A model generated the notes under the pieces. It was not told the origin of the DNA and searched no databases. It saw nothing but the letters and a program-made list of their open reading frames with translations. The position numbers were made by a program, and so were the translations under genes. This document shows, one piece after another, positions 31,334-50,428 of a stretch of 64,000 nt of DNA (position 1 is the first letter of the stretch; every line of letters starts with the position of its first letter). This DNA comes from Asanoa ishikariensis (GTDB lineage Bacteria; Actinomycetota; Actinomycetes; Mycobacteriales; Micromonosporaceae): NCBI RefSeq assembly GCF_900107455.1, contig NZ_FNQB01000001.1, positions 2,108,001 to 2,172,000 of the forward strand, in the 5' to 3' direction.

Positions 31334-31414
31334 CACGCCGGATTCCCTGATCGCCCGCAGGTCGCGCACGCGGTTGGCAATGCTGAAGCTCTGGCGAGAG
31401 CCGAGGAGCGAGCG

Positions 31415-31939: not shown

Positions 31940-32931
31940 TGACGATGCGACCGATCACGTTCTTCCGGGCCGGCTCGATCGACGACGCGGTCGCCGCGGT
32001 CAGCGCCAACCCGGACAGCGCGTTCCTGGCCGGCGGCACGACCGAGATCGACCTGCTGCGGCTGGGCGTGATCCAGCCGACGCTGCTGGTCGACGTCAAC
32101 GAGCTCCCGCTGACCTATCTCGAGGACACCGAGAGCGGCGGCGTACGGATCGGCGCGATGGCCCGGATGAGCGACGTGGCCCGGGCGCCGCGCATCGTCG
32201 AGCGCTATCCCGGCATGTCGCAGGCGCTGCTGCTGGGCGCCTCGGAACAGTTGCGCAACATGGCGTCGATGGGCGGCAACATGTGCCAGCGCACCCGCTG
32301 TGCCTACTTCCGCGACGGCCGGTCGCCGTGCAACAAGCGCGAGCCCGGCAGCGGCTGCTCGGCGCTGAACGGGGTCAACCGCGGCCACGCCATTCTGGGC
32401 ACCTCGGACCAGTGCATCGCGACCCACCCGTCCGACGTGGCGGTGGCGTTGGTGGCGCTGGACGCGACGGTCCGCACGATGGGACCGGACGGCATCCGGA
32501 CGATCCCGATCGAGCAGTTCTTCCTGCGCCCGGAGGACACACCGAGCGTCGAGCACCCGCTGGAGCACGGCGAGCTCATCGTCGCGATCGACGTGCCGGA
32601 TCTGCCGGTCGCCCGCGCGTCGCGCTACGTCAAGCACCGCGACCGGGCCTCGTACGAGTTCGCGCTGGTCTCGGTCTTCTCCGCGATGCGGGTCGACGAC
32701 AAGGGCAACGTCGCCGAACTGCGGCTGGCCCTCGGCGGCGTCGGCACGGTTCCCTGGCGGGCGCACCGGGCCGAGGAGGCACTGATCGGCCGGCCGGCGA
32801 CGCCGGAGAACTTCGCGGCCGCCGCCGACGCGGAACTGGCCGACGCCGACACCCGGCCGATGAACGCGTTCAAGGTGACGTTCGCCAAGCGCGCGATCGT
32901 CCGCGAGCTGAGCCAGGTGGTGACCTCATGA
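31939..32931 (+). CDS. Molybdenum hydroxylase FAD subunit with [4Fe-4S]-type insert (PaoB/YagS-like)
   Basis: 330 residues from ATG 31939. FAD-binding PCMH fold: FLAGGTTEIDLLRLGVIQPT near residue 35, ASMGGNMCQRTRCAYFRDGR near 110. The run CQRTRC, SPCNKREPGSGC, then NRGHAILGTSDQC gives four or more spaced cysteines, the pattern of the extra [4Fe-4S] cluster described in E. coli PaoB and in 4-hydroxybenzoyl-CoA reductase beta subunits. Ordinary CoxM/XdhA FAD subunits lack it. ATGA overlap with the large subunit gene. Confidence 0.92.
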   Translation: MTMRPITFFRAGSIDDAVAAVSANPDSAFLAGGTTEIDLLRLGVIQPTLLVDVNELPLTYLEDTESGGVRIGAMARMSDVARAPRIVERYPGMSQALLLGASEQLRNMASMGGNMCQRTRCAYFRDGRSPCNKREPGSGCSALNGVNRGHAILGTSDQCIATHPSDVAVALVALDATVRTMGPDGIRTIPIEQFFLRPEDTPSVEHPLEHGELIVAIDVPDLPVARASRYVKHRDRASYEFALVSVFSAMRVDDKGNVAELRLALGGVGTVPWRAHRAEEALIGRPATPENFAAAADAELADADTRPMNAFKVTFAKRAIVRELSQVVTS

Positions 32932-36794: not shown

Positions 36795-36806
36795 GGAAAC
36801 GTTTAC
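36795..36806 (+). promoter_or_regulatory. LacI-family operator 1
   Basis: GGAAACGTTTAC, a near-perfect AACGTT-centred palindrome of the LacI/GalR type, between the -35-like element and the ribosome site of the repressor gene. Centre is 43 bp from operator 2. Confidence 0.8.
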
Positions 36807-36830
36807 AGCTACCGGGTGGAGGTGCAGGAC

Positions 36831-37898
36831 GTGGGTCGTAAACGTTTACAGGAGTCCGCGGACGTTCGGCCGACGGTGCACACCGTGGCCGCTCGTGCCG
36901 GTGTCTCCATCGCGTCCGCGTCCCGGGTGTTGAACGGGGTCGGTGGCAGTCCGGAGACCGTCCGCAAGGTGCGCGAGGCGGCGGCCGAGGTCGGTTACGT
37001 GCCCAACGCGATCGCCCGTTCGCTGCAGTCGCAGCGCACCGAGCTCATCGCGCTGGCCGTCGAGGACATCGGCAACCCGGTCTACGTCGAGATGATGCGG
37101 GCCATCGAGGCCGTCGTCGCCTCCTCCGGGCGGCAACTGCTGGTGCACGCCACCGGCGGGCGGATCGACAACGAGACCGCCCTGCTGCGCCGGCTCGCCA
37201 ACCGCTACGTCGACGGGATGATCGTCTCGCCGATCCGCGTCACCGCCGACCATCTGACCGCGCTCCAGGACAGCCCGGTGCCGGTGGTCGTGGTCGGTCA
37301 GCTAGCCGCGGACGCACCGGTCGACAACGTCCGCACCGACTCGCGCCGGGGCATCGCGATGGCGGTGGACCATCTCGTCGCCACCGGCCGGCGCCGGATC
37401 GGTTTCGTCAACGGCCCGCTCGACACGGTCCCGGGCGCGGCCCGTGACGCCGGGTTCCGCGCCGCGCTGGCCGCACACGGCATCGCGCTGGACGAGAACC
37501 TGATCGAGATCGGCGACTTCCAGTACGCCGCCGGCCGGGACGCCACCGAACGGCTGCTCGCCCGCGCCGAGCCGGACGCCCTGGTCTGCGCCAACGACCT
37601 GATCGCCGCCGGCGCGCTGCACACCCTGCTGGCCCGGGGCCGGCGCGTGCCGATCGACGTCGCCCTGGTCGGCATGGACGACACCGAGCTGGCCCGGATG
37701 ATGTTTCCCCAGCTCTCCAGCGTCTCCCTCGGCTCGGCCGAGCGTGGACGCCGCGCCGCCGAGCTGCTCCTGCAACGCATCGCCGACCCGAGCCTGCCGC
37801 CGCGCCGCGCGTCGGTCGAGCCCAGTCTCGCCGTGCGGGCCTCCAGCGCGCAGGCCCAGGTCCCGGCCCAACCGTCCCGGGAAGAGGTGACGTCATGA
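36831..37898 (+). CDS. LacI-family transcriptional repressor of the 36.8-50.4 kb operon
   Basis: 355 residues from GTG 36831, chosen because GGAGG lies eight bases upstream; an earlier GTG at 36816 lacks a site. HTH and hinge: PTVHTVAARAGVSIASASRV, LNGVGGSPETVRKVREAAAE, GYVPNAIARSLQSQRTELIA. Effector domain of periplasmic-binding fold: DNVRTDSRRGIAMAVDHLVA, RRRIGFVNGPLDTVPGAARD, PDALVCANDLIAAGALHTLL and VALVGMDDTELARMMFPQLS. It is the first gene of the operon (ATGA overlap to the permease) and its start codons contain a perfect operator, so it should autoregulate. Effector unknown, probably a pentose or glycoside. Confidence 0.92.
   Translation: MGRKRLQESADVRPTVHTVAARAGVSIASASRVLNGVGGSPETVRKVREAAAEVGYVPNAIARSLQSQRTELIALAVEDIGNPVYVEMMRAIEAVVASSGRQLLVHATGGRIDNETALLRRLANRYVDGMIVSPIRVTADHLTALQDSPVPVVVVGQLAADAPVDNVRTDSRRGIAMAVDHLVATGRRRIGFVNGPLDTVPGAARDAGFRAALAAHGIALDENLIEIGDFQYAAGRDATERLLARAEPDALVCANDLIAAGALHTLLARGRRVPIDVALVGMDDTELARMMFPQLSSVSLGSAERGRRAAELLLQRIADPSLPPRRASVEPSLAVRASSAQAQVPAQPSREEVTS
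36838..36849 (+). promoter_or_regulatory. LacI-family operator 2, inside the repressor's first codons
   Basis: GTAAACGTTTAC, a perfect 12-bp palindrome, only 7 bp past the repressor start. With operator 1 it brackets the ribosome site; binding could cause looping or a roadblock. Confidence 0.85.
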
Positions 37899-38800
37899 CG
37901 ACGCTGCGCGTCGGGAAGCCGCACAAGGCCCGCTCCGACAAGCTCACCATCTACCTGCTGCTGCTTCCCTCGCTGCTGCCGGTCCTCCTGCTCTCGGTGT
38001 TCCCGCTGCTGCGGGGCATCTACCTCGGCTTCACCGACGCCCGCGCCGGCCGCAACGTCGACGTCACCTTCACCGGCTTCGAGAACTACAAGGAGCTGCT
38101 CGGCGACGAGATGTTCTGGAACTCATTCAAGATCGGCCTGATCTGGGCGCTCGGCGTCACCGTGCTCCAGTTCGTGCTCGCCCTCGGGCTCGCGCTGCTG
38201 CTCAACCAGCAGCTCCGGTTCCGAGGCGTGGCCCGGGTGCTGTCCGTCGTGCCGTGGGCGATGCCGCCGGTCGTGGTCGGCATCCTCTGGAAGCTCGTCT
38301 ACCACCCGGACGCCGGGCTGCTCAACGAGTTCTTCCACCGGATCGGCGCCGACGGCCTGCGCGCCAACTGGCTCGGCGACTTCAGCACCGCACTGCCCGC
38401 GGTCATCATCGTGGGCGTCTGGGCCGGCATGCCGCAGACCACCGTGGTGCTGCTCGCCGGCCTCCAAGGGGTCGCGCCCGAGCTGCACGAGGCGGCGGCC
38501 GTGGACGGGGCCAGCGCGTGGCACCGGTTCCGGCACGTCACGCTGCCCGCGCTGGCGCCGGTCATCGTGGCGATCACGTCGCTGGACTTCATCTGGAACT
38601 TCAACTCGTTCGGCCTGGTCTACGTGCTGACCGCCGGCGGTCCGGGCGGCAAGACGATGTTGCCGATGCTCTTCGCGTACGAGGAGGCGTTCCGCTACGG
38701 CAACTACGGATACGCCGCCGCCCTCGGCAACGTGATGGTCGTGATCATCGTGGCGCTGCTCGCCATCTATCTCCGTCGCCGGCTGCGGGAGGCGAACTGA
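37895..38800 (+). CDS. Sugar ABC transporter permease, MalF-like
   Basis: 301 residues. Six membrane helices, starting IYLLLLPSLLPVLLLSVFPL near residue 18. Binding-protein-dependent permease loop EAAAVDGASAWHRFRHVTLP near 205 (EAA motif) followed by ALAPVIVAITSLDFIWNFN. First permease of a CUT1-type importer with the gene at 38,802 and the lipoprotein at 39,676. Overlaps the repressor by ATGA. Confidence 0.93.
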   Translation: MTTLRVGKPHKARSDKLTIYLLLLPSLLPVLLLSVFPLLRGIYLGFTDARAGRNVDVTFTGFENYKELLGDEMFWNSFKIGLIWALGVTVLQFVLALGLALLLNQQLRFRGVARVLSVVPWAMPPVVVGILWKLVYHPDAGLLNEFFHRIGADGLRANWLGDFSTALPAVIIVGVWAGMPQTTVVLLAGLQGVAPELHEAAAVDGASAWHRFRHVTLPALAPVIVAITSLDFIWNFNSFGLVYVLTAGGPGGKTMLPMLFAYEEAFRYGNYGYAAALGNVMVVIIVALLAIYLRRRLREAN

Positions 38801-38801
38801 C

Positions 38802-39641
38802 ATGCTGGGCAAACCGAGCCGCACCGGTCGGACCTTGCAGTACCTGGCCCTCGCGGCATACCTGATCTTCCTCGGGTTCCCGCTGGTCTGGCTGCTCTCG
38901 ACGGCCTTCAAGCCACCGCGCGAGCTGGTGCAACTGCACCCGACCCTGATTCCGAGCAACCCTACGGTCCAGAACTTCGTCCAGGCCTTCACCGAGCAGG
39001 AGCTGGGGCGGGCGGCGTGGAACAGCCTCCAGGTCTCGCTCGCGTCGGCGGTGCTGACCGTGCTGGTCGCCATGCCGGCGTCGTACGCCCTCGCCAGGTT
39101 CAAGTCCAAGCTCGGCACGCTGGCGCTGGGCTGGGTGCTGCTGTCCCAGCTCTTCCCGTTCGTCCTGCTGATCATCCCGATCTTCCTGGTGCTGCGGCAG
39201 GCCGGCCTGGCCAACTCGCACGCCGGGCTCGTGCTGATCTACGTGGTCTGGGCGCTGCCGTTCGCGCTCTGGATGCTCCAGGGCTTCGTCCGCAACATCC
39301 CGCGTGAGCTGGAGGAGGCGGCGTCGGTCGACGGCGCGAGCCGGCTGCAGACCCTGCGTCGAGTGGTCTTCCCGCTGCTCGCGCCGGGCCTGGTGGCGAC
39401 CGCGCTGTTCTCGTTCATCTCCGCCTGGAACGAGTTCTTCTTCGCCCTGGTCCTGATCAAGACGCCCGAGCTGCAGACGTTGCCCGTCGCGCTGGCGCGG
39501 TTCGTCGGCATCGAGGGCACCGCCCGGCTCGGCCCGCTGGCCGCCGGCGCACTGCTGGCCACCCTGCCCAGCCTGATCTTTTTCGCGTTCATGCAACGCC
39601 GGCTCTCGTCCGGGTCACTAGCCGGCGCGGTCAAGGGCTGA
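38802..39641 (+). CDS. Sugar ABC transporter permease, MalG-like
   Basis: 279 residues with six helices (YLALAAYLIFLGFPLVWLLS, LLSQLFPFVLLIIPIFLVLR) and the EAA loop ELEEAASVDGASRLQTLRRV near 170, then FSFISAWNEFFFALVLIKT typical of MalG. Starts one base after the MalF-like stop region. No cognate ATPase is in the operon, as usual for CUT1 systems that share MsiK. Confidence 0.93.
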   Translation: MLGKPSRTGRTLQYLALAAYLIFLGFPLVWLLSTAFKPPRELVQLHPTLIPSNPTVQNFVQAFTEQELGRAAWNSLQVSLASAVLTVLVAMPASYALARFKSKLGTLALGWVLLSQLFPFVLLIIPIFLVLRQAGLANSHAGLVLIYVVWALPFALWMLQGFVRNIPRELEEAASVDGASRLQTLRRVVFPLLAPGLVATALFSFISAWNEFFFALVLIKTPELQTLPVALARFVGIEGTARLGPLAAGALLATLPSLIFFAFMQRRLSSGSLAGAVKG

Positions 39642-39675
39642 TCTCTCTACCCCACCCCCAAGGAGGTAAGAACCC

Positions 39676-40968
39676 ATGCTCCCCATCAGATTCCGTCGAC
39701 TGGCCGCGGCCGCGGCTATCGCGGTCGTCGGCGTCGGCGCGCTCGCCGCGTGTGGCAACGGCGGCGACGACGAGGCCTCGGCCGGCCCCGTCAAGCTGCG
39801 CTTCCTCAGCCTCGCGTGGCAGAAGGAGTCGCTCCAGGCCAACAAGGACCTGGTCGCCAAGTGGAACTCCGAGCACCCCGACATCCAGGTCGAGTACGTC
39901 CAGGGTGACTGGAACTCGGTGCACGACCAGTTGCTCACCTCGTTCGAGGGCGGCGACGCCCCCGACATCGTGCACTACGAGGCCTCGTCGATCGGCGAGT
40001 TCAGCAAGCAGGGCTACCTGGCCGACCTGAAGGACCTGATCCCGGCCGACCTCAAGGGCCAGATCGACCAGGGCGTCTGGGACACCGTCACCTTCGACGG
40101 CCAGGTCACCGGCGTTCCGTTCCTGCTGGAGTCGCAGGTCGTCATCGCCAACAAGAAGCTGCTCGACGCCGCCGGTGTCACGGTGCCGCCGGCCGACGGC
40201 GGCTGGACCTGGGACGAGTTCCAGGCCAACGCCCAGAAGCTGACCAAGTCCGGCCAGTACGGCGTGGCGTGGGCGCTGAAGTCGCCGACCAACCGGGTGC
40301 TGAACCTGGCGCTCAACTACGACGGCAAGTTCTTCTACTCCGACGGCGGCAAGACCGAGGTCAAGATCGGTGACGCGGAGAAGGAGATCCCGAAGCGGAT
40401 CCACGACATGCTCTACACCTCGAAGACGGCCTCGCCGGAGGCGCTGGGCATGAGCGGCGCCGACACGCTGCCGGGCTTCTTCGGTGGCAAGTACGCGATG
40501 CTGCCCGGCTCGGTCTCGCTGCGCCAGCAGATGGTCGAGCAGGCTCCGAAGGACTTCGAGTGGGTCACGCTGCCGCCGGTCAAGGGCCTGTCCGCCAACC
40601 AGGCGGCCAACCCGCAGACGCTGTCGGTCTCCGCGGACTCCAAGCACAAGGAGCAGGCCGCGCAGTTCCTGTCCTACTTCCTCAACCCCACCAACATGGC
40701 CACGCTGGCCAAGGGTGACTGGCTGGTCCCGACCGGCAAGCAGGCCAACGAGGAGCTCGTGAAGCTCACCGAGGGCAAGCAGGGTTGGGACGTCGCCGCG
40801 AACAGCGCCGCCGACCTGACCGTCGCACCGTTCCAGCAGGCCGACGGCTACCCGGAGTGGAAGACCAAGTACGCCACCCCGGCCCTTCAGCAGTACTTCG
40901 CCAACAAGATCACCCTGGACCAGCTCGCGAGTCAGCTGGTCGACGGTGGCAAGCAGGTTCTGAGGTAA
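39676..40968 (+). CDS. Sugar ABC transporter solute-binding lipoprotein
   Basis: 430 residues from ATG 39676 (AAGGAGG upstream). Lipoprotein signal: FRRLAAAAAIAVVGVGALAA then CGNGG, lipobox LAAC. Family 1 extracellular solute-binding protein: VKLRFLSLAWQKESLQANKD, VEYVQGDWNSVHDQLLTSFE, APDIVHYEASSIGEFSKQGY, VTGVPFLLESQVVIANKKLL, GFFGGKYAMLPGS. Delivers the operon's oligosaccharide or glycoside to the two permeases. Ligand not predictable. Confidence 0.93.
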   Translation: MLPIRFRRLAAAAAIAVVGVGALAACGNGGDDEASAGPVKLRFLSLAWQKESLQANKDLVAKWNSEHPDIQVEYVQGDWNSVHDQLLTSFEGGDAPDIVHYEASSIGEFSKQGYLADLKDLIPADLKGQIDQGVWDTVTFDGQVTGVPFLLESQVVIANKKLLDAAGVTVPPADGGWTWDEFQANAQKLTKSGQYGVAWALKSPTNRVLNLALNYDGKFFYSDGGKTEVKIGDAEKEIPKRIHDMLYTSKTASPEALGMSGADTLPGFFGGKYAMLPGSVSLRQQMVEQAPKDFEWVTLPPVKGLSANQAANPQTLSVSADSKHKEQAAQFLSYFLNPTNMATLAKGDWLVPTGKQANEELVKLTEGKQGWDVAANSAADLTVAPFQQADGYPEWKTKYATPALQQYFANKITLDQLASQLVDGGKQVLR

Positions 40969-40970
40969 CA

Positions 40971-42116
40971 ATGTCACTCTTGCTCGACACATCGGTCGGT
41001 TGCCTGGTCGGCGCCGCGGTCGGAGACGCCCTGGGTGGCGCCACCGAAACCGCGTTGCCGGAGCAGATCCGAGCCCGCTTCGGCGGCTGGGTCGAGGGCA
41101 TCGTGCCCCCGTACCACGCCGACTGGGCCACCGCGCGGCCACTCGCGCCGTACCACAAGGGCGACGGGCACATCACCGACGACACATTGATGACCCATGC
41201 CCTGGTACGCGCGTACGCGGCCAAACGGGACCACCTCGACGCGTACGACGTGGCGGAACTGTTGGTGCCTGACCTGATCGAGCGGGTGGTGCACATCCCC
41301 GACCTGGAGCGGGACGGGGTGACCTTCCATCGGCTCGCGGCCGCCGAGCGGTGGCTGGTCACCCGCCTGCACCACGCACACGCGGACCCGCGCGAGGCCG
41401 GGGTCGGCAACATCGTCAACTGTGGCGCGGCCATGTACATGGCACCGGTCGGCATCGTCAACGCGGGCGACCCGGCCGGGGCGTATCTCGAAGCGGTGGA
41501 GCTCACCGGGGCGCACCAGCACAGCTACGGCCGGGAGGCCGCGGCGGTCTTCGCCGCCGCGGTCGCGGCGGCGGCGGCACCCGGCGCGAGCGTCGAGGAC
41601 GTGGTGGCGGCGGCGCTCGACCTGGCGCGCGACGGCACGAGGGGGGCCATCGACGCCGTGGTCAAGGAGGCCCGGGGGCACGACGACTGGCGCGTGGCGA
41701 TCCCCGCGCTGCGCGCCGCCGTGGCGCCCTTCGACACGGTCGGCGAGGACTACCGCCGGCCGGGTCTGGGCGCCCGTCGGCCGAGCCGGCTGCACGCCAT
41801 CGAGGAGCTGCCGGTCGCCATCGGCATGCTCGTCGTGGCCCGCGGCGAGTTCCGCCCGGCGGTGCTGGGCTCGGTCAACTACGGCCGGGACGCCGACTCG
41901 ACCGCCACCATGGCCGGCGCGATCGCCGGTGCGCTCGGTGGCGCCGACGCGGTGCCCGCCGAGTGGTCCGACGTGGTCGGCACCGCCTCGAAGACCGACC
42001 TGGTGGAGCCGGCCCGCGTCCTCGCGACCGTGGCCACCGAGGTCTTCGAACGGGACCGCGCCCGGTTCGCCCGGCGCGCCGAGCGGTTCGCCGAGCTCGC
42101 CGGCGGCGCCCGGTGA
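40971..42116 (+). CDS. ADP-ribosylglycohydrolase-family protein A
   Basis: 381 residues from ATG 40971, two bases after the binding-protein stop. All-helical ARH fold with metal motifs: VGAAVGDALGGATETALPEQ at the start, GHITDDTLMTHALVRAYAAK (TDDT motif) near 62, and NYGRDADSTATMAGAIAGAL (DADST motif) near 300. Both di-magnesium motifs are intact. ARH-family enzymes cleave ribosyl-N or -O bonds; in sugar-importer operons the real substrate may be another glycoside. Overlaps the second family member by GTGA. Confidence 0.92.
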   Translation: MSLLLDTSVGCLVGAAVGDALGGATETALPEQIRARFGGWVEGIVPPYHADWATARPLAPYHKGDGHITDDTLMTHALVRAYAAKRDHLDAYDVAELLVPDLIERVVHIPDLERDGVTFHRLAAAERWLVTRLHHAHADPREAGVGNIVNCGAAMYMAPVGIVNAGDPAGAYLEAVELTGAHQHSYGREAAAVFAAAVAAAAAPGASVEDVVAAALDLARDGTRGAIDAVVKEARGHDDWRVAIPALRAAVAPFDTVGEDYRRPGLGARRPSRLHAIEELPVAIGMLVVARGEFRPAVLGSVNYGRDADSTATMAGAIAGALGGADAVPAEWSDVVGTASKTDLVEPARVLATVATEVFERDRARFARRAERFAELAGGAR

Positions 42117-43450
42117 GGATCACCTGGGTGCAGCCCGAGGACCTGCTGCCGCACGAGCTAGCGGCCAGCCGGGACGAGGGCCGCGACGTGACCGCGCTGG
42201 CTGCACTGTGGACGGCTGCCGGTGGGGATCTCACCCCGCCGGTCAGCGGTGCGTCGCCGGAGCCGGCGTCGCCGGCAATGCGGGCGCTCGCCGTGGAACT
42301 GCTCGACGCGGCCGACGCGCTGCCGCCCGTCGCCGCCGCGGACGAGCCCGACGACCTGGCCGGCCTGCGGGCGACCTGGCCCGCGACGTGGTCGCTGCCG
42401 ACCACCGTGTCGGTCGACCGGATGCACGGTGCCTGGCTGGGCCGGGCGGTCGGCTGCCTGCTCGGCAAGCCGGTGGAGAAGATCTCCCGACACGGGATCC
42501 GGGAGATCCTCACCGCCACCGGCGGGTGGCCCCTGCGTGGTTACTTCACCGCGCGGGGGCTGCCGGCCGAGGTCGCGCAGCGCTTTCCGTGGAACCGGCG
42601 CAGCGCCCCGACCAGCCTCGCCGAGAACATCGACGGCATGCCCGAGGACGACGACCTGAACTTCGCGCTCCTGGCCCTGCGGGTGCTGGAGACGCACGGA
42701 CGCGGCTTCACCAGCGCCGACGTGGCGCAGGCGTGGCTCGACTGGCTGCCCGGCGGGCGGGTCTTCACCGCCGAGCGCGTCGCCTACCGAAATCTTCTGT
42801 TGGGCTACCCGCCTCCGCTCAGCGCGCGGCGGCACAACCCGTTCCGGGAGTGGATCGGCGCCCAGATCCGCACCGACGTGTACGGCTGGGTCAACCCGGG
42901 TCGGCCCGACCTGGCGGCCGAGCTGGCCTGGCGGGACGCCGTGGTCAGCCACGTCCGCGGCGGGGTGCACGGCGCGCTGTGGGCCGCCGCCCTGGCCGCT
43001 GCCGCGACGGTCGCCCGCGACGTCGACGAGGTGCTGGACGCCGCCGAGGCCGTGCTGCCGCCGCGCAGCCGGTTCGCCGCCACCGTCCGCGAGGCGCGGG
43101 TGCTCGGCGCCGGCACCGACGACTGGGAGGCGGTGGTCGACGCGCTCTACGCCCGGCACGGCCACCTGCACTGGGTGCACGTGCGCAACAACGCCGCCCT
43201 GGTGGCCGCCGCGCTCGCGTACGGCCGGGGCGACCTCGAACGGTCGATCTGCGCGGTGGTCAGCGGCGGGTGGGACACCGACTCGACCGGCGCCACCGTC
43301 GGCGCGGTCACCGGCGCCTTGACCGGCGCCGCCGCACTGCCGGAGCGCTGGGTCGGTCCGCTGCACAACCGGCTGGCCAGCAGCATCGCGGGGTTCGACG
43401 GAATCGGCTTCGACGAGCTCGCCGCCCGGACTCTGGCGGTGGCTTCATGA
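42113..43450 (+). CDS. ADP-ribosylglycohydrolase-family protein B
   Basis: 445 residues from GTG 42113. A 100-residue extra N-terminus (RITWVQPEDLLPHELAASRD) precedes the fold: MHGAWLGRAVGCLLGKPVEK, IDGMPEDDDLNFALLALRVL (first acidic motif is EDDDL rather than TDDT), SARRHNPFREWIGAQIRTDV, and SGGWDTDSTGATVGAVTGAL near 385 (intact DTDST). The altered first motif suggests a different substrate or metal geometry from protein A. ATGA coupling to the kinase. Confidence 0.9.
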   Translation: MRITWVQPEDLLPHELAASRDEGRDVTALAALWTAAGGDLTPPVSGASPEPASPAMRALAVELLDAADALPPVAAADEPDDLAGLRATWPATWSLPTTVSVDRMHGAWLGRAVGCLLGKPVEKISRHGIREILTATGGWPLRGYFTARGLPAEVAQRFPWNRRSAPTSLAENIDGMPEDDDLNFALLALRVLETHGRGFTSADVAQAWLDWLPGGRVFTAERVAYRNLLLGYPPPLSARRHNPFREWIGAQIRTDVYGWVNPGRPDLAAELAWRDAVVSHVRGGVHGALWAAALAAAATVARDVDEVLDAAEAVLPPRSRFAATVREARVLGAGTDDWEAVVDALYARHGHLHWVHVRNNAALVAAALAYGRGDLERSICAVVSGGWDTDSTGATVGAVTGALTGAAALPERWVGPLHNRLASSIAGFDGIGFDELAARTLAVAS

Positions 43451-44358
43451 ACGCGCGCGTCGTGGTGGTCGGCAGCACCAACCTGGACCTGGTCGTGACG
43501 ACGCCGCAGCTTCCCCGGCCGGGGGAGACCGTGCTCGGCGCGGACTTCCGCACCGTGCCCGGCGGCAAGGGCGCCAACCAGGCCGTCGCCGCCGCCCGGG
43601 CCGGCGCCACGTGCGAGTTCGTGGGCGCGATCGGCTCCGACGACTTCGGAGTGCGGCTGCGCGACAGCCTGGTCGCGGCCGAGGTCGGCGTCCGAGGCCT
43701 GCGCACGGTTCCCGGCCCGTCCGGGGTGGCGCTGATCGCGGTCGACCGGGCCGCCGAGAACTTCATCGTGGTCGCGCCCGGTGCCAACAGCGCGCTCACC
43801 GACCTGACCGACGACGACCGGTCCGCGATCGCCGCCGCCGACGTGCTGCTGCTCCAGCTCGAGGTGCCGCTGCCCACTGTGGTCGCCGCGGCCGGCGCCG
43901 CCCGGGCGGCCGGCACCACCGTGGTGCTCAACGCCGCACCGGCCGCGTCGCTGCCGGCGGAGCTGCTGGACCTGGTAGACCTGCTGGTGGTCAACGAACA
44001 CGAGGCAGCCGTCGTGGCCGGACGAGACGAGCCGGTCGACGCCCTCCTGGAGCTCGTGCCCCGGGTGGTGCTGACGCTGGGCGCGCGCGGCGCCGCCTAC
44101 GCCGACCGTTCCGGTCTCCGGCTCGCCGTGCCCGCACCGCGCATCGAGGCCGTCGACACCACCGCGGCCGGCGACGCCTTCACCGGCGCCCTCGCGGTGA
44201 GCTGGGCCGAGCGCGGGGAGGCGGCGGTCGAGCGCACCCTGCGCTGGGCCTGCGCCGCCGGTGCCGCCTGCGCCCAGCGCGCCGGCGCCTCCTCCGCCCT
44301 GCCCGACCGGGCCACCATCGACGCCCTGCACGACGCGACCTACCGAGGAACTCCGTGA
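43447..44358 (+). CDS. rbsK: Ribokinase-like PfkB sugar kinase
   Basis: 303 residues. PfkB signatures: VVVVGSTNLDLVVTTPQLPR at the start, FRTVPGGKGANQAVAAARAG near 35 (signature 1), VVNEHEAAVVAG, and DTTAAGDAFTGALAVSWAER near 235 (signature 2 with catalytic Asp). N-terminal VGS-N-D-L-V and GGKGANQAV are ribokinase hallmarks. Phosphorylates ribose or a similar pentose, which fits release of ribose by the two hydrolases upstream. GTGA overlap with the next gene. Confidence 0.88.
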   Translation: MNARVVVVGSTNLDLVVTTPQLPRPGETVLGADFRTVPGGKGANQAVAAARAGATCEFVGAIGSDDFGVRLRDSLVAAEVGVRGLRTVPGPSGVALIAVDRAAENFIVVAPGANSALTDLTDDDRSAIAAADVLLLQLEVPLPTVVAAAGAARAAGTTVVLNAAPAASLPAELLDLVDLLVVNEHEAAVVAGRDEPVDALLELVPRVVLTLGARGAAYADRSGLRLAVPAPRIEAVDTTAAGDAFTGALAVSWAERGEAAVERTLRWACAAGAACAQRAGASSALPDRATIDALHDATYRGTP

Positions 44359-46301
44359 GCTTCAACCCGTACGTCCCGCGGCCCATCGACCTGCCGACCG
44401 AGGTGCCGCTGGCCGGCCACGCGGACCTCACCGAGCTCGACGAGGCGAAGATCTTCGCCGCGCCGTCCGACCCGGCCGACTGGCCGGCCTGGCGGGCGCA
44501 GCTCACCCGGTGGCGGGCGGGTGCGCGCAGCCGGCTCGGCTATACCGGCAGCCACTACGACGAGATCGCCGGCGACTGCTTCACGGTCTGCCTGGCCTGG
44601 CTGTGGGACGAGACGCTCTACGACCACGAACGCGGCGTCTTCACCGTCGACGCGTTCCTCGACGGTGCCGCCACGGACTTCGGCGGGTTCGACGGCGTGG
44701 TGCTCTGGCACGCGTACCCGGTGATCGGTCTGGACGACCGCAACCAGTTCGACTGGTACCGGGACGTGCCCGAACTGCCTGACGTGGTGCGCGCTTTCCA
44801 GGACCGGGGCGTCCGGGTGTTCGTCGACTACAACCCGTGGGACACCGGGACCCGCCGTGAGCCGGGCACCGACGCCGCGGAGGTCGCCGCCCTGGCCGAC
44901 CTGCTCGGCGTCGACGGCGTCTTCCTGGACACCCTCAAGGAGGGCGCCGGCGAGCTGCGCGCGACGCTCGACAAGGTCCGCCCCGGCCTGGTGCTGGAGG
45001 GGGAGAGCCGCGTCCCGCTCGCCCGGATCGAGGATCACGCGATGTCGTGGGCGCAGTGGTTCGCCGACTCCGAGGTGCCGGGCGTGCTGCGCGCCAAGTG
45101 GTTCGAGCGGCGGCACGTGCTGCACCACACCCGTCGCTGGCACCGCGACCACCTGGACGAGCTGCACTCCGCCTGGCTCAACGGCGTCGGCCTGCTGGTC
45201 TGGGAGAGCGTCTTCGGCGTCTGGGTCGGCTGGAACGAGCGCGACCGCGCGGTGCTGCGGGCGATGCGCCGCGTCCAGACGAGCCACCCGGCGTGGTTGC
45301 GCTCCGAGGACTGGGTGCCGCTCGCCGACCACCCCGGCACCGGTCAGGTGTACGCGTCCCGCTGGACGCACGACGACGTTCCGCTGTGGACGGTGGCGAA
45401 CCGGGGCGGCGACCACGACGGGCCGTGGTTGGTGCTCGACGGCGCCGGCGGGCGGTTCGTCGACCTGGTCACCGGCGCTGAGTTGACCGTCACGTCGGTG
45501 GGTGACGGCCGGATCGCGGTCGGCGGGCCGCTGCCGGCGGGCGCGATCGCCGCTGTGCTGCGCACCGACGCCTCGGTGGAGTCGCACGAGTCCCCGGTCG
45601 GCGATCCGTCGTTCCCGGCCCGTTCCGCCGTCCGCACCCGCACGCCGTGGGCGCCGCTGGCGGACGTGCCTTCAGGTCTGGTCGCCGTCGATGCCGTCCG
45701 GCGGGACCTGGTCGTCCGGCACCGGGTGCGGGAGACCGGCCTCTACGGCGAGGCACCCTACGTCGACGAGTGGAAGCCGCTGCCGCCCCGCCTGCACCAC
45801 ACCGCCACGGTGCGCCGCAGCGTCCACCTAGGACGTTTCGGAATCGCCACGCACGAGGTGACCCACGCCGAGTACGCCGAGTTCCGGAAGGCCACCGGCT
45901 ACGCGCCGATCCGGGCGGAACGCTTCACCGCCGGGCAGGGTCCGGCCGACGCGCCGGTCACCGGTGTCGACCTGGCCGATGCCCGGGCGTACGCCGCCTG
46001 GGCCGGTCTCCGGCTGCCCACCGAGGACGAGTGGCAGGTGGCCGCCGAGGCGGGGCTGCTCGCCCGCCGGGACCCGCTGGTGTGGAACCTGACCGAGAGC
46101 GAGCACTCGGACGGGCGCACCCGCTTCGTGATCCTCAAGGGCGGCGCCGCGTACGAGGCGCAGGGCTCCGATTGGTACTTCGACGGCGGACCGCAGCCGG
46201 CCGAGGTCTCGGTGAAGCTGCTGCTGACCGGCGCCGGAATGACCCGCTCCGACCAGATCGGCTTCCGTTGCGCGGCCGACCTTCCCACCACCGAGGAGTG
46301 A
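44355..46301 (+). CDS. TIM-barrel glycosidase-like protein fused to a SUMF1-like domain
   Basis: 648 residues from GTG 44355. Residues ~20-450 look like a glycoside-hydrolase barrel: FDGVVLWHAYPVIGLDDRNQ, VRVFVDYNPWDTGTRREPGT, GVDGVFLDTLKEGAGELRAT (possible catalytic Asp), LVLEGESRVPLARIEDHAMS (possible acid Glu), then a beta domain. Residues ~500-648 are a SUMF1/FGE-like fold: GRFGIATHEVTHAEYAEFRK, GLRLPTEDEWQVAAEAGLLA, ending RSDQIGFRCAADLP. The paired cysteines of true formylglycine-generating enzymes are missing, so that activity is unlikely. No signal peptide: cytoplasmic. I do not recognise the exact GH family. Confidence 0.75.
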   Translation: MSFNPYVPRPIDLPTEVPLAGHADLTELDEAKIFAAPSDPADWPAWRAQLTRWRAGARSRLGYTGSHYDEIAGDCFTVCLAWLWDETLYDHERGVFTVDAFLDGAATDFGGFDGVVLWHAYPVIGLDDRNQFDWYRDVPELPDVVRAFQDRGVRVFVDYNPWDTGTRREPGTDAAEVAALADLLGVDGVFLDTLKEGAGELRATLDKVRPGLVLEGESRVPLARIEDHAMSWAQWFADSEVPGVLRAKWFERRHVLHHTRRWHRDHLDELHSAWLNGVGLLVWESVFGVWVGWNERDRAVLRAMRRVQTSHPAWLRSEDWVPLADHPGTGQVYASRWTHDDVPLWTVANRGGDHDGPWLVLDGAGGRFVDLVTGAELTVTSVGDGRIAVGGPLPAGAIAAVLRTDASVESHESPVGDPSFPARSAVRTRTPWAPLADVPSGLVAVDAVRRDLVVRHRVRETGLYGEAPYVDEWKPLPPRLHHTATVRRSVHLGRFGIATHEVTHAEYAEFRKATGYAPIRAERFTAGQGPADAPVTGVDLADARAYAAWAGLRLPTEDEWQVAAEAGLLARRDPLVWNLTESEHSDGRTRFVILKGGAAYEAQGSDWYFDGGPQPAEVSVKLLLTGAGMTRSDQIGFRCAADLPTTEE

Positions 46302-46305
46302 CCTG

Positions 46306-48435
46306 ATGAGCAGACTCTGGCGAATCGTCGGCGGCGTGGCCGTCATCCTCCTCGCGCTCGGCCTGGCCGGCGCGCTGCCCGGCCCGGCCGGTGCGGAACG
46401 CCTCCGCGCGGGCACGCTGACCACCGCGGCCGCGCCGTCGCCGGCACTGGGCGGCGACATCGACTACACCGTCTACCTGCCGTACGGCTACGACGCGGCT
46501 GCCGCCACCCGCTACCCGGTGCTCTACCTGCTGCACGGGCGCGGCGACACCATGGCGGCCTGGACCCGGGTGAAGGACGACCTGGACAAGCTGATCGCCG
46601 ACAAAGAGGTGCCGCCGGTGATCGCGGTGCTGCCGGACGCGCCCTGGAGCGACCGCGGCAACTACTACGTGGACTCGGCCTACACCGGCGCCGACGACCC
46701 CGGCCGGCCCGTGGAGACGGCGTTCACCCGCGACCTGGTCGCCCACGTCGACGCCACCTACCGCACCGCCGCTCACCGGGGTGCCCGGCTGATCGGCGGC
46801 TACTCGATGGGCGGGGCCGGTGCCCTGCGCTACTCCCTCGCGCACTCCGACCTCTTCGCGAACGCGCTGGTGCTCAGCCCGGCCGTCTACAAGCCACTGC
46901 CGCCGGCGGACTCGTCGGCGCGGGAGTTCGGGGCCTTCGGGTCGGGCGACGAGCGTTTCTCCGACGAGGTCTACCAACGGCTCAACTACCCGGCCCTGCT
47001 GTCCGGCCGGGACGCGGACACGCCGGTGCGGATGTACATCGCGGTCGGCGACGACGAGTGGGCCAACCCCGACCCGGCCGACGCGGCACACGACCTCGAC
47101 TACGAGGCCGCGACGCTCTACAACTCCGTGCGGCGCGCCGACGGCGTGGCCGCCGAGTTCCGGGTCATCGACGGCGGGCACGACTGGGACGTCTGGCGAC
47201 CGGCCTTCGTGGACGGTCTCAAGCACCTCGCACCCACGCTCAGTGCCACGCCGCCGGCCGGCCTGCCCGGACCGGTGCACGGCACCGCGGGCGCCGACTG
47301 GGCGGGCGGCGTCGCGGCGCACCCCGACGGCACCACCACCATCGGGTACGCGGCCTCGGGTCCGGTGGCCGGGCAGCCGTACGCCGGCGGGCTGGACGCG
47401 GTCGTGAGCCGCGTCGGCGGCTGGACCACGCAGTTCGGCACGCCGGCCAACGACCGCCTCTACGGCGTGGTGCCGACGGCCGACGGCGGCGTGCTCGCGG
47501 CGGGCTACACCCGCGGCGACCTGGACGGCGCGCATCCGGGCAGCCCGGCCGACGACGGTTTCGTGACCCGGCTGACCGCTGCCGGCCAGCGCACCTGGCT
47601 CACCCAGGCCGGCGATCCGGCCAAGGCGGACCGGTTCTACGCGTTGGCGGCGGCCCCGGACGGCGGCGCCTACGTGGCGGGCTACTCGAGCGGCTCGTTC
47701 GCGGGCGGCGCGGCGGCCGGCGACAAGGACGCGGTGCTGGCGCGGCTCGACCCTGCCGGAAAGGTCGTCTGGAGCCGACAGTTCGGCGGACCCGGTGAGG
47801 ACAAGGCGTACGCGGTGGCCGCGGACGCCCAGGGCGTCTACGTCGCCGGCAGCACCTCGGCCGCCCTGGCCGGCACCACGCCGCTCGGCGGCACCGACGG
47901 CTGGCTCGCCCGGTTCACACCGGACGGCGCGCGCGACTGGGTGACCGCCGTCGGCGGCACCGGCGACGACCTGCTCGGTGGTGTCGCGATCGCCACGAAC
48001 GGCACGGCGGTGGCCACCGGGTCGAGCGACGGAGACGTCCTGACGGTCGCGTACACGAAGGCCGGCAAGCAGAAGTGGCGCGTGGTCACCGGCGGCCGTG
48101 GCGCCGAGGCCGGCGCGGACGTGGTGCCGCTGCCCGACGGCGGCGTCGCGGTGGTCGGCTTCACCGGCAGCACGCTCGGGCTGCCGGTCGGCGGCGCCGA
48201 CGTGCTGACCCTGCGGCTGGACGCGCGCGGGCGCCAGGTCGGCGTGGCCCAGTACGGCACCGCCCGCGACGACGCGGCCGACGCGTTCGGCGAGGAGAAC
48301 GTCTACGCGACCCGGGCCGCGGACGGCCGGCTGCTGGTCACCGGTCTGACCGCGGGGTCACCGGTCGGCGGCGGGGCGCTCGGCAACGGCGACGTCTTCC
48401 TCGCGTCCGTCGACCCCGCCAAGGGGACGCCATGA
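46306..48435 (+). CDS. Secreted esterase fused to a beta-propeller
   Basis: 709 residues, four bases after the previous stop. Signal peptide: RLWRIVGGVAVILLALGLAG, cut after PAGA. Esterase D/feruloyl-esterase-like domain, residues ~40-315: TRYPVLYLLHGRGDTMAAWT, GARLIGGYSMGGAGALRYSL with nucleophile Ser near 167, a late Asp (VGDDEW) and FRVIDGGHDWDVW (His). From ~325 to the end are repeated ~50-residue units such as DGGVLAAGYTRGDL, GGAYVAGYSSGSF, QGVYVAGSTSAAL, each with a GT/GG-x-D-D/A motif, typical of SBBP/delta-60 propellers. Probably deacylates an extracellular glycoside or polymer. Overlaps the CoA-transferase by ATGA. Confidence 0.85.
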   Translation: MSRLWRIVGGVAVILLALGLAGALPGPAGAERLRAGTLTTAAAPSPALGGDIDYTVYLPYGYDAAAATRYPVLYLLHGRGDTMAAWTRVKDDLDKLIADKEVPPVIAVLPDAPWSDRGNYYVDSAYTGADDPGRPVETAFTRDLVAHVDATYRTAAHRGARLIGGYSMGGAGALRYSLAHSDLFANALVLSPAVYKPLPPADSSAREFGAFGSGDERFSDEVYQRLNYPALLSGRDADTPVRMYIAVGDDEWANPDPADAAHDLDYEAATLYNSVRRADGVAAEFRVIDGGHDWDVWRPAFVDGLKHLAPTLSATPPAGLPGPVHGTAGADWAGGVAAHPDGTTTIGYAASGPVAGQPYAGGLDAVVSRVGGWTTQFGTPANDRLYGVVPTADGGVLAAGYTRGDLDGAHPGSPADDGFVTRLTAAGQRTWLTQAGDPAKADRFYALAAAPDGGAYVAGYSSGSFAGGAAAGDKDAVLARLDPAGKVVWSRQFGGPGEDKAYAVAADAQGVYVAGSTSAALAGTTPLGGTDGWLARFTPDGARDWVTAVGGTGDDLLGGVAIATNGTAVATGSSDGDVLTVAYTKAGKQKWRVVTGGRGAEAGADVVPLPDGGVAVVGFTGSTLGLPVGGADVLTLRLDARGRQVGVAQYGTARDDAADAFGEENVYATRAADGRLLVTGLTAGSPVGGGALGNGDVFLASVDPAKGTP

Positions 48436-49622
48436 CGACCCAGCCCTTGGAGGGCGTAAAGGTCGTCGACCTGGCGACGCTCTTCGCCGGCCCGCTCGCG
48501 GCGGCCTTCCTCGGTGACTTCGGCGCCGACGTGGTCAAGGTCGAGCACCCGGCCAAGCCGGACCCGGCCCGCGGCCACGGCCCCGCCAAGGACGGCGTCG
48601 GTCTGTGGTGGAAGGTGCTGGGCCGCAACAAGCGCACGGTCACGGTCAACCTCTCCGACCCGGACGGCGCGGCGGTGCTACGGACGCTGCTCGCGGACGC
48701 CGACGTGCTCGTGGAGAACTTCCGCCCCGGCACGCTGGAGCGGTGGGGCCTCGGGCCGGCGGAGTTGCACGCCGTCAACCCTCGGTTGGTGGTCGCCCGG
48801 ATCAGCGGGTTCGGCCAGGTCGGGCCCTACGCGCGCCGGCCCGGCTTCGGCACACTGGCGGAGGCGATGAGCGGGTTCGCCGCCGCGACCGGTGAACCGG
48901 ACGGTCCGCCGACGCTGCCGCCGTTCGGGTTGGCGGACTCGATCGCGGCGCTGGCCACGGCGTACGCGGTGATGCTGGCCCTGCGCTCCCGGGACGTCAG
49001 CGGCACCGGGCAGGTGGTCGACCTGGCCATCATCGAGCCGATCATGGCGATGCTCGGACCGCAGATCACCTGGTACGACCAGCTCGGCTACGTCCAGCCC
49101 CGGCTCGGCAACCGGTCGAACAACAACGCGCCGCGCAACACGTACCAGTGTGCCGACGGTCGTTGGGTGGCGGTCTCGACCAGTGCCCAGAGCATCGCCG
49201 AGCGCGTGATGGCGCTGGTCGGCCGGCCCGAGCTGGTCGACGAGCCGTGGTTCAGCACCGGCAGCGGCCGGGCCGCGCACGCCGACGAGCTCGACGCCGC
49301 GGTGGGCTCCTGGGTGGCGCGCCGCGATCGGGACGAGGTGGTGGCCGCGTTCGAGGAGGCGCAGGCCGCGGTGGCGCCCGTCTACGACGTGCGGGACATC
49401 CTCGCGGACCCGCAGTACTCGGCGCTGGGGACCGTGCTCGCGGTGCCCGACGAGGAGCTGGGCTCGGTGCGGATGCAGAACGTGCCGTTCCGGCTGTCCG
49501 AGACGCCGGGGGAGATCCGGCACGCCGGCCGGCGGCACGGCCAGGACACCGATGCGGTCCTGGCGGCCCTCGGCTACGACCCTGACGAGCTGGCCGCGTT
49601 CCGCGCGCGTGGGGTGATCTGA
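48432..49622 (+). CDS. CaiB/BaiF-type CoA-transferase (family III)
   Basis: 396 residues. Family III CoA-transferase: LEGVKVVDLATLFAGPLAAA near residue 6, FLGDFGADVVKVEHPAKPDP with the catalytic Asp in the GADVVKVE region, GRNKRTVTVNLSDPDGAAVL, VLVENFRPGTLERWGLGPAE, RISGFGQVGPYARRPGFGTL, and IEPIMAMLGPQITW. Moves CoA between an acyl donor and a carboxylate such as a di- or hydroxy-acid. Stop and next start share one base (TGATG). Confidence 0.92.
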   Translation: MTTQPLEGVKVVDLATLFAGPLAAAFLGDFGADVVKVEHPAKPDPARGHGPAKDGVGLWWKVLGRNKRTVTVNLSDPDGAAVLRTLLADADVLVENFRPGTLERWGLGPAELHAVNPRLVVARISGFGQVGPYARRPGFGTLAEAMSGFAAATGEPDGPPTLPPFGLADSIAALATAYAVMLALRSRDVSGTGQVVDLAIIEPIMAMLGPQITWYDQLGYVQPRLGNRSNNNAPRNTYQCADGRWVAVSTSAQSIAERVMALVGRPELVDEPWFSTGSGRAAHADELDAAVGSWVARRDRDEVVAAFEEAQAAVAPVYDVRDILADPQYSALGTVLAVPDEELGSVRMQNVPFRLSETPGEIRHAGRRHGQDTDAVLAALGYDPDELAAFRARGVI

Positions 49623-50428
49623 TGCTGCTGACCTGGCTCTACGTGCCCGGCGACCGACCGGACAGGTTCGCCAAGGCGGTGGCGTCGGGCGCGGACGCGG
49701 TGATCCTCGACCTGGAGGACGCCGTCGTTCTCGGCCGCAAGGCGTACGCCCGGTCGGCGGTCGCGGAGTTCCTCGCCGCACCGCACCCGGTGCCGGTGCA
49801 GGTGCGGGTCAGCGAAGACGTGGATGCCGACCTGGCGGCGGTGGCCGGCCTCCCCGGGCTCGGCGGGCTGCGGCTGCCCAAAGTGGAATCGTCGAGCGCG
49901 GTCACGTCGTTGGCTTCGCGGGTCGACGTGCCGCTGCACCCGCTGATCGAGTCGGCGGTCGGGCTGGAGAACGCTTTCGCCATCGCGTCCGCCCATCCGG
50001 CGGTCGCGTCTCTCGGTCTCGGCGAGGCCGACCTGCGCTCGGACCTGGGCGTGAGCGACGACGACGGACTGCTCTGGGCACGCGGCCGGGTCGTGGTGGC
50101 GGCCCGCGCCGCCGGCCTGCCACCGCCGGCGATGTCGGTTTTTGTCGACCTCGCGGACACCGACGGACTGGCCGCGTCGTGCGCGCGCGGCCGACGGCTC
50201 GGCTTCCTCGGCCGGTCGGCGATCCACCCGCGCCAGCTCCCCGTGATCGTCTCGGCCTTCAGACCGTCGGCCGCCGAGGTCGACCGGGCAGCCGAGCTGT
50301 TGGCGGCCGTGGCCGAGGCGTCGAGCCGGGAGTCGGGGACCGCGGTGCTCCCGGACGGCCGGTTCGCCGACCGCGCGATGGTCGCCGCTGCGCAGCGCAC
50401 CGTCGACCTGGCCGCCCGCTACAGCTGA
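49622..50428 (+). CDS. HpcH/HpaI-type CoA ester lyase (CitE-like)
   Basis: 268 residues. CitE-like barrel: TWLYVPGDRPDRFAKAVASG, DAVILDLEDAVVLGRKAYAR near 27 with the Mg-binding Asp/Glu, VPLHPLIESAVGLENAFAIA near 110, LGLGEADLRSDLGVSDDDGL and GFLGRSAIHPRQLPVI at the C-terminal cap. Cleaves beta-hydroxyacyl-CoA such as malyl-, citramalyl- or related CoA to acetyl-/propionyl-CoA and an oxo-acid. With the CaiB gene it forms an activate-and-cleave pair. Last gene of the operon; its 3' end overlaps the opposing hydrolase by 10 bp. Confidence 0.9.
   Translation: MLLTWLYVPGDRPDRFAKAVASGADAVILDLEDAVVLGRKAYARSAVAEFLAAPHPVPVQVRVSEDVDADLAAVAGLPGLGGLRLPKVESSSAVTSLASRVDVPLHPLIESAVGLENAFAIASAHPAVASLGLGEADLRSDLGVSDDDGLLWARGRVVVAARAAGLPPPAMSVFVDLADTDGLAASCARGRRLGFLGRSAIHPRQLPVIVSAFRPSAAEVDRAAELLAAVAEASSRESGTAVLPDGRFADRAMVAAAQRTVDLAARYS

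What the first reader, a model, noticed from the sequence alone, without database searches (positions are those of the whole stretch)
36831..50428. Eleven-gene LacI operon pairing two ADP-ribosylglycohydrolases and a ribokinase with an importer, a GH/SUMF1 fusion, a secreted esterase and a CoA-transferase/lyase pair
Seen: eleven consecutive plus-strand genes, almost all overlapping by 1-4 bp or a few bases apart, from the repressor to the CitE-like gene. Known: ARH-family enzymes cleave ribosyl bonds, ribokinase phosphorylates ribose, CUT1 importers move glycosides, CaiB/CitE pairs activate and cleave hydroxy-acids. Inference: a complete route for an acylated riboside or related glycoside: extracellular deacylation, import, glycosidic cleavage, pentose phosphorylation, acid cleavage. 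I know of no named pathway with this exact set.
Basis: partly seen in the sequence, partly recalled or inferred. Interest (0 to 1): 0.78.

Follow-up and report, generated by a model that had tools for sequence, protein, structure and literature searches.

The report
Conserved ARH–CoA-lyase glycoside catabolic operon
Many actinobacteria share a gene cluster that seems to import an unknown sugar conjugate, split off its sugar with enzymes usually thought to undo ADP-ribosylation, and burn the acid that remains, which suggests that this enzyme family also has an ordinary food-digesting job.

Summary
The eleven-gene operon is real (window 36,816/36,831–50,428) and not an accident of this genome. 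In 71 named loci with enough flank, the second ARH-family gene is joined by the first ARH gene in 71, a CoA-transferase/CitE-like lyase pair in 62, a ribokinase-like gene in 50, and LacI plus importer in 48. The secreted esterase is in 9: an accessory. Of 394 genomes of the class, all 59 with the second ARH gene also carry the CoA-transferase, against 32 of 335 others. The GH-SUMF1 gene and a further ARH pair replace each other (26 loci against 41; 3 both, 1 neither), which points to glycoside cleavage by ARH proteins. The Streptomyces version has four ARH genes in a row and fits SCO2028–SCO2031, listed in print as uncharacterised DraG homologues. Best reading: a catabolic route for an imported furanosyl (probably ribosyl) conjugate whose other half enters metabolism through CoA transfer and acyl-CoA lysis, probably a C4-dicarboxylate-like hydroxy acid. 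Substrate and activities are untested.

The parts
36795..36849 (.). Twin LacI-type operator: GGAAACGTTTAC 36795-36806 and GTAAACGTTTAC 36838-36849, 43 bp apart; the second lies inside the LacI reading frame
   Evidence: sites AA[AC]CG[TG]TT near the LacI gene in 89 of 103 LacI-bearing loci (recounted; some genomes occur twice); exact AAACGTTT in 47 of the 51 named ones
36831..37898 (+). LacI/GalR-family repressor (start 36816 also possible)
   Evidence: Pfam PF00356 and PF13377; best NCBIfam hits RbsR, far below cut-off
37895..38800 (+). ABC permease 1 (CUT1-like; the class name is recalled)
   Evidence: Pfam PF00528; NCBIfam hits UgpA/MalF below cut-off
38802..39641 (+). ABC permease 2 (CUT1-like)
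   Evidence: Pfam PF00528; NCBIfam hits GlcU/MalG below cut-off
39676..40968 (+). Solute-binding lipoprotein (lipobox LAAC by eye)
   Evidence: Pfam PF01547/PF13416; best PDB relatives are mostly sugar-binding proteins
40971..42116 (+). ARH-A: ADP-ribosylglycohydrolase-fold protein, motifs T69-D70-D71 and D307-x-D309-S310
   Evidence: Pfam PF03747; motifs invariant in 41 sequences; model pLDDT 90.8, nearest DraG 2woe/2woc and MJ1187
42113..43450 (+). ARH-B: ARH-fold protein with ~100-residue N-terminal extension; motifs E178-D-D-D181 (variant) and D388-x-D390-S391
   Evidence: Pfam PF03747 from residue 106; alignment of 11
43447..44358 (+). Ribokinase-like PfkB kinase
   Evidence: Pfam PF00294; TIGR02152 268.4 bits, below its cut-off of 299.65
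44355..46301 (+). Glycosidase-like barrel fused to a SUMF1/EgtB-like domain; no signal peptide seen by eye
   Evidence: Pfam PF03781 at 485-574 only; model pLDDT 83.1, Foldseek hits to alpha-amylase-type barrels and to FGE/EgtB at low TM-scores; D192, E217, D227 invariant in 30
46306..48435 (+). Esterase with beta-propeller repeats, signal peptide by eye; lineage-specific accessory
   Evidence: Pfam PF00756, PF06739; in 9 of 71 loci
48432..49622 (+). CaiB: class III CoA-transferase
   Evidence: Pfam PF02515; PDB relatives include formyl-CoA and succinate-hydroxymethylglutarate CoA-transferases
49622..50428 (+). CitE-like acyl-CoA lyase; E110 and D137 invariant
   Evidence: Pfam PF03328; RipC and citE models below cut-off; alignment of 27

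Best explanation
A dedicated catabolic operon for an imported furanosyl (most likely ribosyl) conjugate. The lipoprotein and two permeases bring the conjugate in, probably using an ATPase shared with other sugar importers. Inside, ARH-A and ARH-B, together with either the GH/SUMF1 protein or the ARH-C/ARH-D pair, hydrolyse its glycosidic bonds. The ribokinase-like enzyme phosphorylates the freed pentose. The non-sugar half is, or becomes, a beta-hydroxy acid that CaiB turns into its CoA thioester and the CitE-like lyase splits into an acyl-CoA and a keto or aldehyde compound; the contexts of free-standing CaiB suggest a C4-dicarboxylate-like acid of the malate/citramalate type. LacI represses the operon until an intermediate binds it. 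Shown here by sequence: gene content, conserved linkage, conserved acidic motifs, a local operator. Inferred: substrate, order of steps, every enzyme activity.
For: Linkage: ARH-A in 71, CaiB and CitE together in 62, kinase in 50, LacI and importer in 48 of 71 loci; 9 of the 80 fetched were dropped for short flanks. Clustering of the genes called in 65 core loci gave, in ten or more loci, only these genes and housekeeping neighbours of the Streptomyces loci. Genome level: CaiB in 59 of 59 ARH-B genomes, 56 of them within 12 kb, against 32 of 335 others. For the nine loci without the CaiB/CitE pair, 8 of 9 genomes have a CaiB relative of 65-70% identity beside CitE elsewhere; the ninth (L108) has a partial CaiB (37% of its length) about 100 bases from the contig end, running with ARH-C and ARH-D on the other strand. 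Order changes but the set stays: CaiB-CitE precede LacI in L054 and L146; in L061 the CaiB comes from another clade, an apparent separate recruitment. GH/SUMF1 against ARH-C/D: 26 and 41 loci, 3 both, 1 neither, as expected if both do the same glycosidase step. A relative of ARH-B sits with a nucleoside hydrolase, an importer and a ribokinase-like gene in L041. Acid side: in 18 loci read around free-standing CaiB, a PrpD-family gene is in 14 and a cyclase-family gene in 14; known PrpD-family substrates share a C4-dicarboxylate core (PMC12290011, passages). Around the 8 relocated CaiB/CitE pairs a GntR gene is in 8 and a DctM gene in 2.
Against: No activity, ligand or expression data. The kinase was not scored near 21 of 71 loci and is below the ribokinase cut-off; all 12 kinase-less genomes examined (12 of the 21) have ribokinase-like genes elsewhere, but so have 14 of 14 control genomes. 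Most Streptomyces clusters have no importer. CaiB also lives without ARH genes: 32 of 91 CaiB genomes by search, of which two proved to have the cluster, 17 more were read and 13 were not; CitE was found near only 13 of the 18 free-standing CaiB loci. So the acid genes are not specific to this pathway. The loci are related by descent, so the Fisher values (5e-15; 4e-47) overstate the evidence. I know of no abundant natural product that fits the inferred substrate.
Confidence: 0.55

Rival explanations
1. The ARH genes are ADP-ribosyl hydrolases that reverse ADP-ribosylation or salvage ADP-ribose, as their annotation and the Streptomyces literature assume; the kinase and acid genes recycle by-products.
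For: The predicted fold of ARH-A is closest to DraG and MJ1187, then ARH3, with intact metal motifs. S. coelicolor papers list SCO2028-SCO2030 (PMC5087735) or SCO2028-SCO2031 (PMC9411070) among DraG/ARH homologues (passages).
Against: Linked to a sugar-type importer with a local repressor and to CaiB/CitE; no other gene family recurs around the core loci apart from Streptomyces housekeeping neighbours. The ARH-C/D pair alternates with a glycosidase-like protein. SCO2028 and SCO2030, presumed orthologues, showed no activity on U-alpha-ADPr (PMC13036486, passage), though that is a single substrate.
Confidence: 0.13
2. Nucleoside or nucleoside-antibiotic catabolism: the ARH enzymes cleave unusual (alpha or N-linked) ribosides and CaiB/CitE finish an acid made from the base.
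For: An ARH-B relative is next to a nucleoside hydrolase and a ribokinase-like gene (L041). In 18 loci of free-standing CaiB an amidohydrolase gene (allantoinase-like) is in 10 and a cyclase-family gene in 14.
Against: Neither of those two genes was found in any of the 80 named ARH loci (9 of these have short flanks); nucleosides usually use other importers than CUT1 (recalled).
Confidence: 0.17
3. Two neighbouring units: a glycoside operon and a general organic-acid unit that merely travel together.
For: CaiB exists without ARH genes and in nine of 71 loci the pair is not in the cluster.
Against: CaiB is in 59 of 59 ARH-B genomes and within 12 kb in 56, in varied order and with an apparent second recruitment in L061; in the window the genes overlap or abut.
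Confidence: 0.13

Closest known systems
DraG/ARH family (ADP-ribosylglycohydrolases; DraG, ARH1, ARH3)
   Same: Pfam PF03747 fold and metal motifs in ARH-A; PDB fold matches
   Different: Two to four paralogues in one catabolic-looking operon; ARH-B has a ~100-residue extension and EDDD in place of TDD; ARH-D has an altered second metal motif
E. coli yegTUV (transporter, ARH-family, PfkB-family kinase; gene roles recalled)
   Same: Transporter, ARH-family and sugar-kinase-like genes in one operon (gene roles recalled; operon and its regulator from the abstract start of PMC10819704 in a search listing)
   Different: GntR-type regulator YegW; one ARH gene and no CoA-transferase/lyase pair (recalled)
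Itaconate/citramalate degradation (Ict-Ich-Ccl; RipABC)
   Same: CoA-transferase and a CitE-family lyase; RipC is the best NCBIfam hit of the lyase but below cut-off
   Different: No hydratase gene in the operon; the transferase is class III; linked to glycoside genes
LacI-controlled CUT1 glycoside-utilisation operons of actinobacteria (kind recalled)
   Same: Repressor, two permeases, lipoprotein, glycosidase-like genes, palindromic operator
   Different: ARH-family proteins as the constant part, with a CoA-transferase/lyase branch

Membership tests
ARH/DraG fold (PF03747) | Sequence match to the family model | tested here: met
   ARH-A 161.7 and ARH-B 174.6 bits against cut-off 26.2
ARH/DraG fold (PF03747) | Two Asp-rich metal motifs (motif roles recalled) | tested here: met
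   ARH-A: T69-D70-D71, D307-D309-S310 invariant in 41. ARH-B: EDDD and DTDS invariant in 11, a variant of the first motif
ADP-ribosyl hydrolase (function) | Hydrolysis of an ADP-ribosylated substrate | not testable with these tools
   One outside test of presumed orthologues SCO2028 and SCO2030 on U-alpha-ADPr was negative (PMC13036486, passage)
DraG and Tri1 equivalogs | NCBIfam curated cut-offs | tested here: not met
   TIGR02662 54.9 and 36.9 of 337.05; NF041672 48.7 and 21.7 of 490
Ribokinase equivalog TIGR02152 | Score above curated cut-off | tested here: not met
   268.4 of 299.65; only 1 of 12 actinobacterial genomes and 4 of 14 controls have any gene over it, so a weak test
Alpha-amylase-like glycosidase (gene 8, N-terminal half) | Recognised GH sequence family | tested here: not met
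   No GH model in Pfam (E up to 0.001) or NCBIfam (E up to 0.01)
Alpha-amylase-like glycosidase (gene 8, N-terminal half) | Barrel fold with acidic catalytic residues | tested here: inconclusive
   Foldseek E about 1e-8 to alpha-amylase-type enzymes but query TM-scores about 0.3; D192, E217, D227 invariant
Formylglycine-generating enzyme / EgtB | Catalytic cysteines kept (FGE; recalled) | tested here: not met
   None of the three cysteines of the window protein is invariant; C639 in 19 of 30. EgtB iron ligands were not tested
Class III CoA-transferase | Family match over the full length | tested here: met
   PF02515, 405.7 bits, residues 6-373 of 396
CitE/HpcH lyase | Family match and metal-binding acidic residues | tested here: met
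   PF03328 91.6 bits; E110 and D137 invariant in 27; their role as metal ligands is recalled
CUT1 ABC importer | Own ATPase in the operon | tested here: not met
   None in the operon; five MalK-type OB domains over cut-off elsewhere in the genome; ATPase sharing is common in actinobacteria (recalled)

The most novel reading that the evidence does not exclude
A branch of the ARH superfamily is a true family of metabolic glycosidases, used in sets of two to four to take apart a widespread but unrecognised furanosyl (ribosyl) conjugate of a hydroxy-dicarboxylic acid, from streptomycetes to small-genome actinobacteria; the 'surplus' ADP-ribosyl hydrolases of Streptomyces coelicolor would be part of this food pathway and not erasers of ADP-ribosylation.
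Probability: 0.3. Interest if true: 0.78.

Novelty: new variant of a known kind. Interest (0 to 1): 0.6.

Why it matters
It gives a testable metabolic role to a block of ARH-family genes that in Streptomyces are counted as ADP-ribosylation erasers, predicts an unknown natural substrate shared by many actinobacterial families, and offers a new glycosidase-like protein (gene 8) whose first half no Pfam or NCBIfam model recognises and that seems able to stand in for an ARH pair.

Tried and rejected
Internal promoters or terminators: the simple scan gave nothing above chance. FGE activity of gene 8: rejected because no cysteine of the window protein is invariant. Esterase as a core step: rejected (9 of 71), although it recurs at two positions: between gene 8 and CaiB in Asanoa, Micromonospora and Rugosimonospora (L085, L088, L089, L091, L092), and after CitE in L105, L110, L137, L139 and L156 (Microbacteriaceae and Cellulosimicrobium); L104 ends before CitE. 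The xanthine-dehydrogenase-type genes upstream (30077-35177; one subunit by Pfam, the rest by eye) as part of the system: rejected, as they are not among the recurrent neighbours. ARH-A outside the class: in 246 genomes of the phylum 7 matched at E up to 1e-50, all 7 from the window's class, so nothing was learned from more distant groups.

Literature: eight searches (one search listed 20 of 39) showed no paper in which I saw this pathway described. I saw listings, and passages of six papers; none was read in full. The library lacks most subscription journals and preprints.

The identity of the Streptomyces cluster with SCO2028-SCO2031 is inferred from four consecutive ARH genes, from flanking genes named by eye from translations, and from the papers' lists; S. 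coelicolor itself was not read.
Full report
What is there. The window lies in a 9.09-Mb genome; its CaiB is nearest to that of Asanoa hainanensis (95%), so it is a Micromonosporaceae genome close to Asanoa. Neighbouring genes overlap or lie at most 34 bases apart. Pfam matches all of them, gene 8 only in its SUMF1-like half.

Regulation. The palindrome GTAAACGTTTAC lies at 36838-36849 and a one-mismatch copy at 36795-36806. In the whole genome one further site has at most one mismatch. A pair 43-45 bp apart recurs in most Micromonosporaceae loci of this type; other groups have one site or other spacings. In 89 of 103 LacI-bearing loci at least one site of the looser pattern lies near the LacI gene; 14 have none (some genomes occur twice). 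This fits a local repressor. The simple promoter and terminator scan found nothing above chance.

Conservation. ARH-B was searched in 250 genomes of the family (68 with a match at E up to 1e-20, including distant paralogues) and in 394 of the class (63 at E up to 1e-70). ARH-A in 246 genomes of the phylum gave 7 matches at E up to 1e-50, all within the class. Stretches at 80 places were read: 65 core loci and 15 with only more distant ARH-B relatives. One search clustered the genes called in them; in ten or more core loci only LacI, the permeases, SBP, ARH genes, kinase, gene 8, esterase, CaiB and CitE recur, apart from housekeeping neighbours of the Streptomyces loci. A second, named set of 80 loci (the best 80 of a capped list) was scored; nine were dropped because a contig end lay within 6 kb. 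Of the other 71: ARH-A 71, CaiB 62, CitE 62 (always together), kinase 50, LacI, both permeases and SBP 48 each, ARH-C 44, ARH-D 43, gene 8 29, esterase 9. The two sets overlap in some genomes.

Two alternative glycosidase parts. Loci have either gene 8 (26) or ARH-C, nearly always with ARH-D (41); 3 have both and 1 neither, and that one (L108) carries C, D and a partial CaiB on the other strand. In 46 sequences each, ARH-C keeps the metal motifs (GTDDTEY, GRDADT), while ARH-D keeps SDDAEW but has changed the second motif. The model of gene 8 (pLDDT 83.1) matches alpha-amylase-type barrels and, at its other end, FGE/EgtB; the TM-scores are low, so the exact GH relation is open. D192, E217 and D227 are invariant in 30 sequences; none of the protein's cysteines is. 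A relative locus (L067) again shows an ARH-C-like and an ARH-D-like gene near a gene of the alpha-amylase family.

Genome-level link. In the same number of class genomes, 394, CaiB relatives at E up to 1e-155 occur in 91 (the handles agree). All 59 genomes with an ARH-B orthologue (at least 330 bits, my cut) are among them, 56 with the two genes within 12 kb; of the 335 others 32 have CaiB. Two of those 32 (G516, G579) proved on reading to have the ARH cluster too (L182, L183). Kinship among genomes makes the p-values too small.

Where the acid module goes without ARH genes. The nine loci lacking CaiB/CitE were all followed: 8 of 9 genomes have a CaiB orthologue elsewhere, beside CitE and a GntR-type regulator gene in 8 of 8, with a DctM-type transporter gene in 2. 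The ninth is L108. Of the 32 CaiB genomes without an ARH-B match, 19 were read, plus a second CaiB copy in G464 (20 places); 13 were not. After removing L182 and L183, 18 loci remain: CitE 13, cyclase-family 14, PrpD-family 14, amidohydrolase 10, IclR 8, flavoprotein 6, branched-chain-type binding protein 5 (at 60 bits or more). The cyclase, PrpD, amidohydrolase and flavoprotein genes were found in none of the 80 named ARH loci. Known PrpD-family substrates share a four-carbon dicarboxylate core (PMC12290011, passages), which is my reason for guessing a C4-dicarboxylate-like acid.

History. In the CaiB tree (111 rows) the ARH-linked rows need three changes of label (at least two by well-supported branches); the deepest forks among them are not resolved. 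Of the 18 free-standing rows 16 form one supported group; L191 falls with the GntR-type rows and L197 stands apart. The one ARH-linked row inside the free-standing group is L061, from a 1.8-Mb genome (locus G+C 47%), whose cluster is LacI, permeases, SBP, ARH-A, ARH-B, gene 8, CaiB, CitE. This row has a long branch and odd composition, so the separate recruitment is likely but not certain. In L054 and L146 the CaiB-CitE pair stands before LacI.

Streptomyces. There the cluster is ARH-C, ARH-D, ARH-A, ARH-B, with or without the kinase, then CaiB and CitE, mostly without importer (L141 and L143 have one). In the two loci read in detail it lies beside genes that look like glutamate synthase, lgt and tryptophan synthesis (names by eye). 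S. coelicolor papers list SCO2028 to SCO2030 (PMC5087735) or SCO2028 to SCO2031 (PMC9411070) as uncharacterised DraG/ARH homologues (passages), and SCO2028 and SCO2030 did not act on U-alpha-ADPr (PMC13036486, passage). The orthology is my inference.

Mechanism and limits. The best reading is import, glycosidic cleavage by ARH-A and ARH-B plus gene 8 or ARH-C/D, pentose phosphorylation, and CoA transfer and lysis of the acid. Linkage, motifs and operator are shown by sequence. Ribose as the sugar, the nature of the acid, and the order of steps are inferred. The kinase misses the curated ribokinase cut-off and was not scored near 21 of 71 loci; 12 of those genomes were examined and all 12 have ribokinase-like genes elsewhere, as have all 14 control genomes, so this neither helps nor hurts. 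The importer's ATPase is not in the operon; five MalK-type domains over cut-off lie elsewhere in the genome.

Verdict. A real, conserved and apparently undescribed catabolic gene set (no description seen in eight searches). New variant of a known kind.

Noticed in passing
window 30077-35177: Ferredoxin-reductase-like gene followed by a 2Fe-2S protein, an FAD-binding subunit (Pfam) and a large molybdopterin-type subunit (by eye): a xanthine-dehydrogenase-like set upstream of the operon, not conserved with it.
   Followed up: partly
L067:11532-17969: An ARH-C-like and an ARH-D-like gene, an alpha-amylase-family protein and a probably secreted ARH-family protein of 651 residues in one place.
   Followed up: partly
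L184-L201: A recurrent operon of CaiB, often CitE, a cyclase-family gene and a PrpD-family gene, often with an allantoinase-like gene and a TcuA-like flavoprotein: an organic-acid pathway of its own that I could not name.
   Followed up: partly
L149: ARH-A to ARH-D and LacI appear on a 4.9-kb contig labelled as a Trueperaceae MAG: transfer or wrong binning.
   Followed up: no
L061: A 1.8-Mb actinobacterial genome (G509) keeps the cluster with LacI, importer, ARH-A, ARH-B, gene 8, CaiB and CitE despite its small size.
   Followed up: partly
G548, G306, G439, G349: Second, distant ARH-B paralogues whose match runs through one in-frame stop codon.
   Followed up: no
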